From assembly GCA_025449935.1 (NCBI GenBank), contig JANWIJ010000072.1, positions 1 to 52,178 of the forward strand: a DNA stretch of 52,178 nucleotides, written 5' to 3'. Numbering within the stretch: position 1 is the stretch's first letter; each line of letters begins with the position of its first letter. Of the stretch, positions 16,637 to 21,398 are shown one piece after another. This DNA comes from Chitinophagaceae bacterium (lineage in GTDB: Bacteria > Bacteroidota > Bacteroidia > Chitinophagales > Chitinophagaceae). Position numbers and translations under genes: made by a program. Under the pieces are notes generated by a model. The model was given only the letters and a program-made list of their open reading frames with translations, was not told the DNA's origin and did not search any database.

Positions 16637-16661
16637 ATAGTGAAACGAATAGTTGTTAAGA

Positions 16662-16689
16662 GGTCGTCCCCATGGGGTGGCCTTTTTTT
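16662..16689 (+). terminator. Intrinsic terminator after ssb
   Basis: GGTCGTCCC and GGGTGGCC around CATG form a GC-rich imperfect hairpin (16662-16682), followed by seven T residues. It lies 25 bp past the ssb stop. The remaining 16690-16907 stretch is AT-rich and holds only a promoter and very short ORFs. Confidence 0.75.
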
Positions 16690-16852
16690 ATAGGATAAAT
16701 GTTTGCTACCGGCTGTTAGTATATGAAGGGGTCATGGATAACAGCAATGAATTATCAGTAACTATAGATGGATAAATGATGAATGACTATTGATCGGTTG
16801 TTGAATGTTATTAAGCATCTAACCTTAATTATTCACATTTAACGATAATAGA

Positions 16853-16883
16853 TTTGTTACATTAAAGTTTATATATATCTTTT
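16853..16883 (+). promoter_or_regulatory. Putative promoter of the SET/ATP-grasp unit
   Basis: TTTG (16853-16856) is followed after 19 bp by TATCTTTT (16876-16883), one base from the Bacteroidota TAnnTTTG -7 box. A transcript would start near 16890, giving an AT-rich leader of about 18 nt before ATG 16908. No operator-like repeat was seen. Confidence 0.5.
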
Positions 16884-16907
16884 CATATCAATACTTATTA
16901 ACCCATT

Positions 16908-17414
16908 ATGTCAACCCTTATTAACCCTGCTTATCTTACTATAAGCAATCATGAAATCGCCGAAGTGCGTCAAAAATTATCCAACCGGCAAAACTCATTA
17001 TTTGCGCTCCGCCCCTATCAGGCGGGTGAAGTGATCGCCAGTTTTTCGGCCGGTACTATTTCTGCTGAGCCCACTTACCTCACCGTACAGGTGGGTACCC
17101 GCAAACACATTACCCTGCAACCTGAATTCCTGCAGTATATCAATCACAGTTGTGATCCGAATGTTTTCTTTGATACATCCTCGATGCAGCTGGTAGCATT
17201 AAGGGAAGTGCAGCAGCAGGAAGAAATGACCTTTTTTTATCCGTCGACCGAGTGGAAGATGACACAAACGTTTAATTGCTATTGCGGAAGCCCCGTTTGT
17301 ATCGGGGAGATAAAAGGTGCGGCGTTTCTATCCAAGGAAGCAAAGGATAAATACCGTTTTACTGATTTTATTCAACAACAACTGGCCAAACGTGCGGCCA
17401 GAAAAGTAGCGTGA
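16908..17414 (+). CDS. Stand-alone SET-domain protein (putative lysine methyltransferase)
   Basis: A 168-residue protein made almost wholly of a SET domain. The SAM and lysine channel motif NHSCDPN is at 79-85, a possible catalytic Tyr is in MTFFYPS (Tyr111), and a post-SET zinc site CYCGSPVC has Cys124, Cys126 and Cys131. The N-terminal strand region RNSLFALRPYQAGEVIASF (consensus reading) matches SET motif I in a divergent form lacking the GxG. SET enzymes transfer methyl groups from SAM to lysine. It heads a three-gene unit; its stop overlaps or abuts the start of the ATP-grasp gene. The substrate is unknown: it could be a protein, or a product of the linked ligases. Confidence 0.82.
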   Translation: MSTLINPAYLTISNHEIAEVRQKLSNRQNSLFALRPYQAGEVIASFSAGTISAEPTYLTVQVGTRKHITLQPEFLQYINHSCDPNVFFDTSSMQLVALREVQQQEEMTFFYPSTEWKMTQTFNCYCGSPVCIGEIKGAAFLSKEAKDKYRFTDFIQQQLAKRAARKVA

Positions 17415-17419
17415 TTGTG

Positions 17420-18583
17420 ATGAAAATACCTGAAGCCACCCGGTTATTGAAACCCTATACAGTCTGGGTACTTGCGCCTCACCTGGAATCTGATGACCCC
17501 AACATCCAACACTATTATGATTTTACCCAAAGTATAAAAGAGTATACCGGGGTATTCCAGGAACTGAAAGCTGAATGGAAATGGCAGCCGGTTACACTCG
17601 ATAATTACAAGGATATAATCCGTTCCATTGCCATCAGTGCAAATGGTAAAACACCCCTGGTATTAAACCTGTGCGACGGGGACGAGGTAAATGGCACTCC
17701 CGGTCTGTCTGTTATACATGAGCTGGAGAAGTATGGACTTATATATACCGGGTCTGACAAGCATTTTTATACTATAACAACTTCCAAGATTCCTATGAAG
17801 AAGGCTTTTGATAAAGCCGGGGTTCCTACCGGGAACTGGAGAGTGATCACTGAAAAAAAGGGATCCATAAAGGGAATCTGCAAAAGAGTCGGTACACCTG
17901 TTATTATCAAACCAGCAGTGTCCGGCGGGAGTATGGGTGTTTCAGTTAAAAACGTAGTGCATACAGAAGAAGAGCTTGCAAACAGAGTGGAAGAAATATA
18001 TAAGGGCTACCATGGATGGAACCTGTTGGCGGATGGCCTGTTTGCCGAACAATTTATTACCGGCCCTGAATTTACCACCTTTATCACAGGGTCTGCTGAC
18101 GACCCGGATAATTGCCGGGTATATGAACCGGTAGAAAGAGTTTTTCACCAGTCCTTACCGGAAGCCGAGAAATTTTTATCCTTTGACCGTCTTTGGGAAA
18201 TTTATGAAGAAGAATCACCGATGCCGGCAAACGAGAATTTTTATGAATACCGGTCTGTGGAGCCATCCCTGGTCCCAGCGCTGAAGCAATTGAGCCTGGA
18301 TGCCTATCGGTCCTGTGGTGGAAAGGGTTATACACGGATTGATATCCGCCAGGACGCAGTCACCGGGAAATTGTATATGCTGGAAGTAAATGCCCAGTGT
18401 GGACTAAGCGAGGATGAAGACTATACTTCTATCGGGGCCATTTTGAAGGTATCGGGCATTTCATTTACAGAAATTATTGCCGAAATATTGAAAGACGCCT
18501 TACGCAGAAGTATGATCAAGCCTGTCTCCGGCAAAAAAGCAAAGAATTTAAAATCTAAAAAACCGTTACGGTTAAGTAAGTAA
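17420..18583 (+). CDS. D-Ala-D-Ala-ligase-like ATP-grasp protein
   Basis: A protein of about 387 residues starting at ATG 17420; a GTG at 17411 overlapping the SET stop is an alternative. The N-terminal lobe has LVLNLCDGDEVNGTPG and YTGSDKHFYTITTSKIPMKK, matching the Ddl pre-ATP-grasp layout. The ATP-grasp part has PVIIKPAVSGGSMGVSV for nucleotide binding, EQFITGPEFTTFI, and the metal-binding end YTRIDIRQ plus LEVNAQCGLS. Such enzymes activate a carboxylate as acyl-phosphate and join it to an amine. The usual Ddl ending E-x-N-T-x-P-G is changed to E-x-N-x-x-C, so the substrate is not simply D-Ala-D-Ala. The gene lies between two SET genes. Confidence 0.85.
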   Translation: MKIPEATRLLKPYTVWVLAPHLESDDPNIQHYYDFTQSIKEYTGVFQELKAEWKWQPVTLDNYKDIIRSIAISANGKTPLVLNLCDGDEVNGTPGLSVIHELEKYGLIYTGSDKHFYTITTSKIPMKKAFDKAGVPTGNWRVITEKKGSIKGICKRVGTPVIIKPAVSGGSMGVSVKNVVHTEEELANRVEEIYKGYHGWNLLADGLFAEQFITGPEFTTFITGSADDPDNCRVYEPVERVFHQSLPEAEKFLSFDRLWEIYEEESPMPANENFYEYRSVEPSLVPALKQLSLDAYRSCGGKGYTRIDIRQDAVTGKLYMLEVNAQCGLSEDEDYTSIGAILKVSGISFTEIIAEILKDALRRSMIKPVSGKKAKNLKSKKPLRLSK

Positions 18584-18624
18584 CCGTGTACTTTATATAG
18601 GTTCTGTTATTACCTTAGTGTGTC

Positions 18625-20058
18625 ATGAAAGTTTGTGTACTGCAACCGGATTATTCGACTACCGGCGTAGATTATAAAAACTACGACCCACCCCGGGATT
18701 TATCAGCATTATTGCCCGGTACAGAAGTACACAATGTATTTCTTAATAAACTTACCACCTACAAGCAACTCAAGGAACTCGGCCGGCAGGGGTATGATAT
18801 TTTTGTCAACCTCTGCGAAGGTTACCTCGAATGGGAAGTACCCAGCATTGATGTCATCTATACATTAGAACTGTTAAACCTTCCTTTCACGGGGCCCACT
18901 ACAAAGCTCTATGATCCTCCAAAGGAATTGATGAAATACCTCGCTTATTGCGAAGGAGTGAAAACCCCGGGCTATGTGATCATCCAAGAGTTGAAGGATG
19001 TGGAAGAAGCGGTTAAGCATTTGGCCTTTCCACTTTTTGTAAAGCCTGCCAAAGCGGGGGATAGCCTGGGAGTGGATGAACATTCGCTGGTGCATAATAA
19101 AATAGAGCTGCAGCAAAAATGTATCAGTATCCTGGAAGAGTACGGGCCCTTGCTGGTTGAAGAATATATTGAAGGGAGAGAGTTTACGGTCCTGGTAGCT
19201 GCCGATAAGGATATACACAGCTGTACTGTTTTTCGCCCGGTGGAATATTTATTCCCCGAGGGAAGGGAATTCAAAACATATGCCTTAAAAACATCCGAAC
19301 TTCATCCGGATTGCAATGTGCCCTGTGATGATCCCGTTTTGGATCAGCAACTCAGGGCTGCCACGGAAAAGATCTTCAAAGGATTTAACGGTGTAGGTTA
19401 TGGCAGGCTTGATTTCAGAATAAACGAAAAAAAAGAGATTTATTTCCTGGAGATCAATTTTACCTGTTCGGTCTTTTACACGGATGGGTTTGAAGGTTCC
19501 GCGGATTATATCCTGAAACATGACGGTATTGGCCAGGCCGGGTTCTTAAAACATATTATTTCGGAAGGGATCGCCCGTCACCAAAGAGGTAAAAAGCCTT
19601 TCGTTATGAAAGGGAATTCTATTGCGGGTTATGGAATTTATGCCAGCCGGAAAATAAAAGATGGGGAAACTATTTTTAAAGGAGAAGGCCGGGCGCAACG
19701 AATCATTACCAAAAGATTTGTTGAAAAGAACTGGAACGAGGATGAAAAAATGCATTTCCGGCGTTATGCCTACCCGGTAAGCGAAGAGCTTTTCATATTG
19801 TGGGATGAGGACCCCTCTGAATGGGCGCCGCAAAATCACAGCTGTGACCCGAATACCGCCTTCGACGGGCTGAATGTTTTAGCGGTTAAAAATATTTCAG
19901 CAGGTGAAGAACTTACCTTGGATTATGCTGAGTTCCTGGATGAAAACATGGAACCATTCCAATGCCGTTGCGGAAGTACGCAATGCCGCGGCGAGATTTC
20001 CGGCCTGGCGGCCAACTCGCTTACTATAAGAGAAAAGGTGCTTAAACAGGAAGCCTGA
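18625..20058 (+). CDS. ATP-grasp / SET domain fusion protein
   Basis: A 477-residue two-domain protein. Residues 1-310 are a Ddl-like ATP-grasp: VNLCEGYLEWEVPS and PFTGPTTKLYDPPKELMK in the first lobe, FVKPAKAGDSLGV (138-150), VEEYIEGREFTVLV (178-191), GYGRLDFR (258-265) and FLEINFTCS (274-282). Residues 325-477 are a SET domain: GNSIAGYGIYASRKIKDGE (330-348), NHSCDPN (404-410), LTLDY (Tyr434) and a post-SET CRCGSTQC (Cys447, 449, 454). Both active sites look intact. The fusion joins in one chain the two activities encoded separately by the two preceding genes, which strongly implies a shared pathway. It follows the second gene after 41 bp. Confidence 0.88.
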   Translation: MKVCVLQPDYSTTGVDYKNYDPPRDLSALLPGTEVHNVFLNKLTTYKQLKELGRQGYDIFVNLCEGYLEWEVPSIDVIYTLELLNLPFTGPTTKLYDPPKELMKYLAYCEGVKTPGYVIIQELKDVEEAVKHLAFPLFVKPAKAGDSLGVDEHSLVHNKIELQQKCISILEEYGPLLVEEYIEGREFTVLVAADKDIHSCTVFRPVEYLFPEGREFKTYALKTSELHPDCNVPCDDPVLDQQLRAATEKIFKGFNGVGYGRLDFRINEKKEIYFLEINFTCSVFYTDGFEGSADYILKHDGIGQAGFLKHIISEGIARHQRGKKPFVMKGNSIAGYGIYASRKIKDGETIFKGEGRAQRIITKRFVEKNWNEDEKMHFRRYAYPVSEELFILWDEDPSEWAPQNHSCDPNTAFDGLNVLAVKNISAGEELTLDYAEFLDENMEPFQCRCGSTQCRGEISGLAANSLTIREKVLKQEA

Positions 20059-20069
20059 CAACATTCTTC

Positions 20070-21398
20070 TTACCTCAGACCCCGTAACACCTGCTTGCTT
20101 CCGTCATCAAGCGCTTTCCTGGCTGCATCATCTACTTTGCCGTCATATTTTCCACTTACATTGGGCTGAACTTTCACAGAACCATCAGCTAACTTTTTCA
20201 GGGTAAGCGTTGCCTCCATATTAAATGAGCTGGCCGCATTGGGATCTGTATTCTTTATGGCTTTCAGCAAGCCGCCTACCTTGCTTGCCTGTTTGATCTT
20301 TGTAAATTCGGTGGTAAGGGAATAGTCACAATTATTTTTTCTTGCATCTTCCTCATCGGTAACCGCGATGGCTTCCACAGTTCCATTATTTAGCGTGCCG
20401 GCCAGGTATTGCTGCAGGGAGGAAACATCGCCAAGACCATCGCCACCGGGCGCCAATACACCAATCCGGATCATCCCCGGTTTTTTCTGTTCGGTCGGGT
20501 CAGTATTGTTCTTGTCGTTATTATTGTTTTGATTCTTGTACTGGTTTACCATGGCATTTACATCAAATTTATCCTGCAGCTCATCTTCGCTCTGAGCCAG
20601 CGTATACCCCGGGGGAATTTCAAAAAGCATGGAGTCTAATTTTGCAGTTGAGAACTCCAGGGTTTCAAGCGAGGTGGTAAATTCACTGGTCTGTGCACCT
20701 TTTCCACCCATAATGATGGTGCGGGTTTCTGTTAATGGAAAGCCCAGCTTCCCCTTCCCGCTTCTACGGGTTACATAACGGTCCTGGCACTCGGGCTTAC
20801 TATAGGTTGCCTGGGTGCTGGTTGCAGGACGGTAAGTAACCGGGCAATTAAACTGGGGCAGGTCAATGTACCAGCCATCTGTTTTGATGATAAAACTATC
20901 CTTCATGCTACAGGCATCAGCGGAGGGTTTCATCTTATTATAGGTCCAGATATGTCGTGCGGTTAATCCATGCATTTTTTTACGCTCGCCGGTATCGGTA
21001 ATGCTGTACCACATGGTAATTACCCCGCCTTTACGGGTTGTGCTATTCTCTTTCGCAGGAACCGTTTTGTTTTTCGCGGGGGTTACAGGTTTTGCATCTT
21101 CATCTATCACTTCATCTGTTTCTTTTGAAAATGGTTCAATAAAATAAAGTTTCTTCTTATCATTGATCTTGATCGTCCGTTGCAGGTCGCACTGTTCAAT
21201 GGTTGTAGGAGTGCTCATACCCATCAGGCCGGCACTTTCTGTTCTTTTACGCATCCCTTTTACATATACGGTTGATTCGGATTTCATACCGGATATCTCA
21301 TTTACCTGGCGGATCTTATATTGTTGGGCAGTAGCTGTATGAACGAAGGATAAGAGTGCAATGACAGCAGCGTAGAAAAAGAGGAAAAACTTTTTCAT
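20070..21398 (-). CDS. Secreted protein of unknown function, 442 residues
   Basis: It begins with a signal peptide (MKKFFLFFYAAVIALLSF, cleavage near TATAQQ). The first half resembles Bacteroidota DUF4412-type proteins: YVKGMRKRTESAGLMG, IEQCDLQRTIKINDKKKLYF and a later WYIDLPQFNC. Such proteins are often described from early metal- or redox-linked reporters, but no function is established. The second half has a Gln/Asn-rich linker (NQYKNQNNNNDKNN) and then a compact domain with IRIGVLAPGGDGLGD and a C-terminal DDAARKALDDGSKQVLRGLR. It is convergent with the ATP-grasp/SET fusion, 11 bp away, so it is not part of that operon. No catalytic residues could be assigned. Confidence 0.72.
   Translation of the reverse strand: MKKFFLFFYAAVIALLSFVHTATAQQYKIRQVNEISGMKSESTVYVKGMRKRTESAGLMGMSTPTTIEQCDLQRTIKINDKKKLYFIEPFSKETDEVIDEDAKPVTPAKNKTVPAKENSTTRKGGVITMWYSITDTGERKKMHGLTARHIWTYNKMKPSADACSMKDSFIIKTDGWYIDLPQFNCPVTYRPATSTQATYSKPECQDRYVTRRSGKGKLGFPLTETRTIIMGGKGAQTSEFTTSLETLEFSTAKLDSMLFEIPPGYTLAQSEDELQDKFDVNAMVNQYKNQNNNNDKNNTDPTEQKKPGMIRIGVLAPGGDGLGDVSSLQQYLAGTLNNGTVEAIAVTDEEDARKNNCDYSLTTEFTKIKQASKVGGLLKAIKNTDPNAASSFNMEATLTLKKLADGSVKVQPNVSGKYDGKVDDAARKALDDGSKQVLRGLR

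What the first reader, a model, noticed from the sequence alone, without database searches (positions are those of the whole stretch)
16853..20058. Three-gene SET / ATP-grasp / ATP-grasp-SET unit of unknown product
A promoter-like pair leads into a stand-alone SET methyltransferase, a Ddl-like ATP-grasp ligase, and a protein in which the two domains are fused. The repetition of the same two activities, separately and fused, argues for one pathway that forms an amide or peptide-like bond and methylates a lysine (or amine) in the same substrate. No precursor peptide, transporter or regulator is visible, and ssb upstream is cut off by its own terminator. This is the best candidate for an undescribed system here. 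An ATP-grasp/SET link in bacteria may already have been noted in comparative genomics, which I cannot check.
Basis: partly seen in the sequence, partly recalled or inferred. Interest (0 to 1): 0.8.

Follow-up and report, generated by a model that had tools for sequence, protein, structure and literature searches.

The report
SET–ATP-grasp biosynthesis operon, product unknown
Three neighbouring bacterial genes, which seem to join building blocks with ATP and add methyl groups using a type of enzyme best known from histone modification, travel together in bacteria of several phyla and probably make a small methylated molecule that some of them may export.

Summary
Window 16908-20058 holds a stand-alone SET methyltransferase (S), a stand-alone Ddl-fold ATP-grasp ligase (G) and an ATP-grasp–SET fusion (F). 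They form a real, recurrent unit. Of 147 genomes of the family, 46 have F; G lies within 1.8 kb of F in 46 of 46; S is in 45 of the 46; 99 genomes have neither F nor S. Of 70 distinct F loci from several phyla, 52 have S nearby and 12 more genomes hold S elsewhere. Gene order changes between lineages while the partners stay.

Relatives often add a transporter: a TM-only ABC protein after F in 26 of 70 loci, a complete ABC exporter in 5 Chlorobium-type loci. The window's own genome lacks the former.

Catalytic residues are nearly invariant. S is closest, by sequence and predicted fold, to BurB, which methylates free methionine, not to histone enzymes. Best reading: a small-molecule pathway in which SET enzymes methylate and ATP-grasp enzymes ligate amino-acid-like units. 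The substrate is unknown; 'lysine' is unproven. I found no description in the open papers searched, but two likely comparative-genomics papers were not held. New variant of a known kind.

The parts
16658..16686 (+). Rho-independent terminator hairpin of ssb, separating it from the operon
   Evidence: fold of 16655-16692: -15 kcal/mol, z -2.77, running into a U tract
16854..16883 (+). Promoter-like pair TTG-N19-TATCTTTT (one mismatch to a recalled Bacteroidota consensus); weak
   Evidence: pattern scan; strict motif not clearly enriched upstream of S in relatives (2 of 41, 0.66 expected)
16908..17414 (+). S: stand-alone SET-domain methyltransferase, 168 aa, BurB-like, with post-SET cysteines
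   Evidence: Pfam SET; best PDB match BurB 1.4e-13; AlphaFold2 model pLDDT 94.9, best Foldseek matches BurB
17420..18583 (+). G: stand-alone Ddl-fold ATP-grasp ligase, 387 aa (GTG start at 17411 also possible)
   Evidence: Pfam Dala_Dala_lig_C; ATP/Mg residues invariant in 38 of 38 rows; lacks Ddl substrate motifs
18625..20058 (+). F: ATP-grasp (about residues 1-320) fused to SET (about 330-462), 477 aa
   Evidence: Pfam; catalytic residues of both domains conserved in 47 rows; model pLDDT 93.0, pTM 0.88, best Foldseek matches Ddl

Best explanation
S, G and F are the core enzymes of one small-molecule pathway. SET domains act here as metabolite methyltransferases (N- or S-methylation of an amino-acid-like unit) and the two Ddl-fold ATP-grasps activate carboxylates with ATP and join them to amines. 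F probably carries out a ligation and a methylation on the same or successive intermediates. The product, likely a methylated dipeptide- or tripeptide-like amide, is exported in many lineages with the help of a linked ABC protein. Shown: the genes, their linkage, co-occurrence, conserved catalytic residues and predicted folds. Inferred: small-molecule substrate, bond type, order of steps, export of the product. Unknown: the acceptor atom and the units joined.
For: (1) Linkage: G lies on the same contig within 1.8 kb of F in 46 of 46 family genomes with F; S is in 45 of these 46, within 6.5 kb in 41; 99 of 147 lack both F and S (Fisher 3e-34 for F and S, genomes not independent). The mismatches are G139 (F and G near a contig start, no S found) and G133 and G135 (S near a contig start, no F found). 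(2) Partners are kept when order or location changes: S-G-F-A, S-G-F, G-F-A-S, F-S-G, S-F-ABC-S; of 18 F loci without S nearby, 12 genomes hold S elsewhere; G352 has S-G and F on separate contigs. (3) Tight spacing: median S-G gap 4 nt (43 pairs), G-F 14 nt (53 pairs). (4) Catalytic conservation: F D263, E276, N278, Y434 and post-SET Cys in 47 of 47; S N79, H80, C82, Y111 in 50 of 50; G D308, E322, N324 in 38 of 38. (5) S is BurB-like by sequence and fold, sharing Y-x-S-T-E. (6) Transporter links: TM-only ABC protein after F in 26 of 70 loci; in the family sample it is in 20 genomes, 19 with F and one (G133) with S and G, and in 0 of the 99 without F and S; a complete ABC exporter in 5 Chlorobium-type loci, one of them checked by Pfam. 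(7) A FemAB-like gene lies inside the Brasilonema unit. (8) No conserved precursor peptide found.
Against: No substrate or product is known. The window's genome has no match to the ABC protein, so export by it is not essential; the TM-only protein has no ATPase gene recurring beside it in the neighbour tables printed. BurB contacts His72, Arg133 and His138 are not kept in the window protein (Leu58, Gln120, Tyr125), and BurB lacks the SET Asn that S keeps, so S need not act on methionine. In 6 of 70 F loci no convincing S was found in locus or genome (L065, L072, L078, L081, L145, L147; L065 and L081 are at contig edges, L072 is in a 1.2 Mb bin). G is absent beside F in Chlorobium. The SET could still act on a protein.
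Confidence: 0.6

Rival explanations
1. Protein modification system: the ATP-grasps ligate amino acids onto a protein (as RimK or TTL do) and the SET domains methylate lysines of the same protein.
For: SET domains are best known as protein lysine methyltransferases, and ATP-grasp ligases such as RimK and TTL modify proteins (recalled); S keeps the Asn of the NHSC motif, which BurB lacks; eukaryotic TTLL12 joins a SET-like and a TTL domain.
Against: Both ligases match Ddl-type families, not RimK or TTL (F by fold); S is nearer BurB than protein methyltransferases by sequence and fold; ABC linkage; no other protein recurs beside the operon outside shared synteny in the clusters seen.
Confidence: 0.2
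2. A methionine or sulphonium pathway (a special case of the best explanation): S makes S-methylmethionine like BurB, and the ligases build it into a sulphonium peptide-like compound.
For: BurB is the closest solved relative of S and makes S-methylmethionine (PMC12542666, abstract and results section; PMC7496086, passages).
Against: 27-29% identity only; His72, Arg133 and His138 contacts differ; BurB binds Met mainly through main-chain atoms (PMC12542666), so residues cannot decide; no BurD/BurE/BurI-like gene was recognised among the recurring neighbours, not all of which were annotated.
Confidence: 0.2
3. Ribosomal peptide (graspetide-like) pathway with an ATP-grasp cyclase and a methyltransferase.
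For: ATP-grasp plus methyltransferase plus ABC exporter is a common layout of such pathways (recalled).
Against: No conserved small ORF found within 700 bases outside the unit in 70 loci apart from what look like pieces of syntenic genes; gaps between S, G and F are a few nucleotides at the median; ATP-grasps are Ddl-type; the one TM-only and one complete ABC protein scanned show no peptidase domain in Pfam.
Confidence: 0.07
4. Chance neighbours of unrelated genes, or a lineage-specific relic.
For: Within Chitinophagaceae many copies share the ssb, mnmG, ybeY and nadD surroundings.
Against: Co-occurrence, reshuffled orders and several phyla.
Confidence: 0.02

Closest known systems
BurB (SET-domain methionine S-methyltransferase, bur/DMSP pathway, Burkholderia thailandensis; PDB 9l4t, 9l4v)
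   Same: Short stand-alone SET enzyme; best sequence match (1.4e-13) and best fold match (1.1e-10) of S; shared Y-x-S-T-E and T-x-Q stretches, active-site Tyr and post-SET cysteines
   Different: 27-29% identical; BurB has LHSC where S has NHSC; SAM contacts His72, Arg133 and His138 not kept in the window protein; substrate of S untested
D-alanine--D-alanine ligase (Ddl)
   Same: Fold (F model), ATP/Mg residues, Pfam Dala_Dala_lig_C
   Different: Far below the NCBIfam cut-offs; Ddl substrate motifs replaced; the genome has a separate Ddl-like gene on contig C6
TTLL12 (eukaryotic SET-like plus TTL protein)
   Same: Joins a SET-like and an ATP-grasp-type ligase domain (PMC3520985, passages)
   Different: Opposite domain order, TTL- not Ddl-type, SET nearest SETD3/4/6 and lacking the critical Asn
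Small amidoligase pathways (BacD-type dipeptide ligases and the like)
   Same: ATP-grasp ligase with tailoring enzyme and transporter; BacD is a weak match of G (3.3e-5); FemAB-like gene in Brasilonema
   Different: SET methyltransferase as tailoring partner and as a fusion; two paralogous ligases

Membership tests
BurB-type SET methyltransferase | Closest by sequence and fold among solved SET proteins | tested here: met
BurB-type SET methyltransferase | SET active-site Tyr and post-SET cysteines | tested here: met
   Y111 aligns with BurB Tyr124; C82, C124, C126, C131 invariant in 50 of 50
BurB-type SET methyltransferase | Side-chain SAM contacts of BurB (Arg42, His72, His93, Arg133, His138) | tested here: not met
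   only Arg42 (R27) and His93 (H80) kept in the window protein; the R27 column is Gly in 28 of 50 rows
BurB-type SET methyltransferase | Methylates methionine to S-methylmethionine | not testable with these tools
   needs enzyme assay
BurB-type SET methyltransferase | DMSP-pathway neighbours (decarboxylase, transaminase, dehydrogenase) | tested here: inconclusive
   none recognised among the recurring neighbour clusters, but most clusters were judged by eye and not annotated
D-Ala-D-Ala ligase | NCBIfam Ddl model above cut-off | tested here: not met
   best 94.7 bits against 243 (G) and 80.7 against 245.65 (F)
D-Ala-D-Ala ligase | ATP-grasp ATP/Mg residues | tested here: met
   D/E/N triad invariant in F (47 of 47) and G (38 of 38)
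D-Ala-D-Ala ligase | D-Ala site motifs (recalled: GGxSxE, HGxxGEDG, N-x-x-PG) | tested here: not met
   replaced, e.g. by NLC[DE]G and N-x-x-C, in alignment to the genome's own Ddl-like protein
RiPP / graspetide | Conserved precursor peptide | tested here: not met
   none found within 700 bases outside the unit in 70 loci (ATG-started ORFs only)
TTLL12 | SET-like domain before a TTL-type ligase | tested here: not met
   order and ligase type differ
Known anti-phage defence system | PADLOC model match | tested here: not met
   0 families for S, G, F and one relative's ABC protein
Protein lysine methyltransferase | Methylation of a protein lysine | not testable with these tools
   needs assay; NHSC and the Tyr are compatible with it

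The most novel reading that the evidence does not exclude
A widespread, undescribed biosynthetic pathway in which SET domains, otherwise famous for histones, serve as metabolite methyltransferases: a bifunctional ligase-methyltransferase (F) with a BurB-like SET (S) and a second ligase (G) builds a permanently charged, methylated amino-acid amide that is exported by dedicated ABC proteins, in Bacteroidota, Chlorobium, cyanobacteria, Gemmatimonadota and others.
Probability: 0.4. Interest if true: 0.8.

Novelty: new variant of a known kind. Interest (0 to 1): 0.63.

Why it matters
The 2020 paper on BurB called its role remarkable because natural-product methyltransferases had been found only in two other fold classes and little was known of prokaryotic SET enzymes (PMC7496086, passages). 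A conserved SET/ATP-grasp unit in many genomes would suggest that SET enzymes are regular small-molecule methyltransferases in bacteria, which bears on what the domain did outside chromatin. Cultured bearers (Lacibacter cauensis, Chlorobium ferrooxidans) make the product directly findable.

Tried and rejected
Promoter conservation: the strict Bacteroidota motif upstream of S was found in 2 of 41 relatives against 0.66 expected; no support. Precursor peptide: none found. Defence: no PADLOC match. Mobile element: no plasmid record (E 1e-25) or phage record (E 1e-15) matches F; 4 viral contigs gave only the ATP-grasp part at 27-31%. Chloroflexi: 15 of 251 genomes matched a Caldilineaceae F, but only that genome's own hit spans the SET half; in 19 regions taken from the other 14 genomes no SET gene was found near the ATP-grasp, so these were not counted as the system. 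The surroundings of unlinked S genes (12 regions) revealed no further recurring component except G beside S in G352 and G1129. TTLL12 kinship rejected. The VIA structure library was not available.

The F model used was built from sequences chosen for length and an NH[SA]C motif, which may inflate the conservation of that motif, not of the ATP-grasp residues, the Tyr or the post-SET cysteines. A2, A3 and A4 hold 47 of 65 listed F, 50 of 55 listed S and 38 of 52 listed G sequences (one search lists, picked by length and diversity) counting the window protein in each. Three duplicate loci were dropped (73 to 70). In one search the F hits of G073 and G010 contain one stop each and that of G095 ends at residue 420. 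Some bin labels look doubtful: L060 'Sphingomonadales' and L065 'Gemmatimonadetes' nest among Bacteroidota; L069, the other such Gemmatimonadota bin with G and F, was not in the tree.
Full report
What is there. The three ORFs are as described. S is 168 aa with a SET domain, G is a 387 aa Ddl-fold ATP-grasp and F is a 477 aa ATP-grasp–SET fusion. The paralogous pairs are far apart: 27% between the ATP-grasps, 39% between the SET cores. ssb ends in a good terminator; the promoter-like pair is weak. GC content of the three genes (0.443-0.456) equals that of the window (0.449).

It is a unit. In 147 genomes of the window's family (the window's own included), a near full-length F (61% identity or more; G095 ends at residue 420, G073 and G010 hold one stop each) is in 46. 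G is on the same contig within 1.8 kb in 46 of 46. S is in 47 genomes, 45 of them with F, in 41 within 6.5 kb of it. F without S is one genome (G139, F and G near a contig start). S without F is two (G133, G135, S near a contig start). 99 genomes have neither. In four genomes S lies away from F but is kept (G021, G053, G093, G118). Genomes are related, so the Fisher value of 3e-34 is not a true probability.

It recurs widely. In a phylum sample, 17 of 395 genomes have F at E 1e-30 or better, in five families. The f18 genomes include Chlorobium ferrooxidans: the F of G365 and of the named contig were the same sequence. Of 339 genomes of the Brasilonema phylum 2 have F at E 1e-50, Brasilonema included. 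Of 251 genomes of the Caldilineaceae phylum 15 match at E 1e-60, but only the Caldilineaceae genome itself shows the SET half. A tree of 47 F proteins has two deep groups, both 100/100: one with Chlorobium, Caldilineaceae, Longimicrobiales and two further families (f24, f54), the other with Bacteroidota, cyanobacteria and a Gemmatimonadota-labelled bin; its bootstrap had not fully settled.

Architecture. Of 73 F loci, 70 are distinct: S-G-F-A 22, S-G-F 20, G-F 8, F alone 7, S-F-S 5, G-F-A 2, S-F 2, and one each of F-A, F-S-G, G-F-A-S and F-S, where A is the TM-only ABC protein. So 52 of 70 have S within 6.5 kb. Of the other 18, 12 genomes hold S elsewhere: G021, G118, G093, G053 and those of L066, L067, L068, L069, L070, L079, L080, L144 (the L069 and L079 hits are weaker, about 143 bits; for L070 the S-G pair lies at a contig start, so the unit may simply be cut). 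L065, L072, L078, L081, L145 and L147 gave no convincing S. G352 (L144) has S-G on one contig and F on another. S and F thus look like the core; G is usual in the Bacteroidota group and not seen beside F in the Chlorobium-type loci.

Transporters. A is PF13748, a TM-only ABC protein, in the three copies scanned. It follows F in 26 of 70 loci. In the family sample it occurs in 20 genomes, 19 with F and one (G133) with S and G, and in 0 of the 99 without F and S; in G044 and G133 it is on another contig than the rest. Five Chlorobium-type loci have a complete ABC exporter between F and a second SET (one checked by Pfam). One cyanobacterium has a MATE gene next to S on the other strand, weak evidence. 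The window's genome has no match to A.

Catalysis. In 47 F rows, E179, K217, K222, R261, D263, R265, E276, N278, C281, H405, C407, Y434, C447, C449 and C454 are invariant, N404 in 46. In 50 S rows, N79, H80, C82, Y111, E115, C124, C126 and C131 are invariant. In 38 G rows, K164, E210, R306, D308, E322, N324 and C327 are invariant. Against the genome's own Ddl-like protein, both ligases lack the recalled substrate motifs and share NLC[DE]G and N-x-x-C; they look like Ddl-fold ligases of other specificity.

What S is like. PDB sequence search gives BurB first (1.4e-13; next 1.7e-6); BurB is also the best SET match of F (1.3e-8). An AlphaFold2 model of S (pLDDT 94.9) gives BurB chains as the first three Foldseek matches (1.1e-10 to 8.5e-10) before MLL4 at 1.7e-6. 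BurB methylates free methionine (PMC12542666: abstract and results section read; PMC7496086: passages read). S shares the active-site Tyr and Y-x-S-T-E, but keeps the Asn that BurB lacks, and several SAM-contact side chains differ. BurB binds Met by main-chain atoms, so residue comparison cannot settle the substrate. The F model (pLDDT 93.0, pTM 0.88) has only Ddl-type ligases among the 50 Foldseek matches listed.

Mechanism. I infer a metabolite pathway: SET enzymes methylate and ATP-grasp enzymes ligate amino-acid-like units, with export in many lineages. The rivals are protein modification, a sulphonium product (a special case) and a RiPP; for the last no precursor was found.

Literature. 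A search for SET domain with ATP-grasp found two papers, one on TTLL12 and one on drug side effects; SET domain, D-alanine-D-alanine ligase and operon together gave none; in broader searches nothing on this link appeared in the listings seen, and a paper on a divergent ATP-grasp clade has no 'SET domain' in its text. Two comparative-genomics papers that I recall as likely to touch on it were not held, so earlier mention cannot be excluded. None of the NCBIfam models shown reaches its cut-off for S, G or F (best 25 shown for G and F).

Noticed in passing
L145:3041-11099: In G351 (f24) F lies between a gamma-glutamyltranspeptidase gene and a run of N-formylglutamate amidohydrolase, MATCAP (tyrosine carboxypeptidase-like) and glutathione-synthetase-like ATP-grasp genes; a second amidoligase-type cluster beside F, seen in this one locus.
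   Followed up: partly
L073:11347-12543: A FemAB-like/GNAT gene sits between S and G in the Brasilonema unit.
   Followed up: partly
L168:8881-10481: A BglII-type restriction endonuclease and a DNA methylase gene lie between G and F.
   Followed up: yes
L146:4812-5174 and equivalents in L077, L149, L152, L153: Chlorobium-type loci carry a second, very short SET gene (about 118-120 aa) after the ABC exporter.
   Followed up: partly
L001 (G000:C6:61289-64585): The window's genome has a further SET-domain reading frame (164 aa) on another contig.
   Followed up: no
window 20070-21398, - strand: 442 aa protein downstream of F with no Pfam match at E 0.01.
   Followed up: no
L060: Labelled Sphingomonadales but has the mnmG, ybeY, nadD, chrA-like surroundings of Chitinophagaceae loci and nests among Bacteroidota F proteins: probably a mislabelled bin.
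   Followed up: partly
L218:6710-8649 and several loci of L092-L127: Tandem pairs of Ddl-like ATP-grasps without SET genes nearby occur in bins of several phyla.
   Followed up: no
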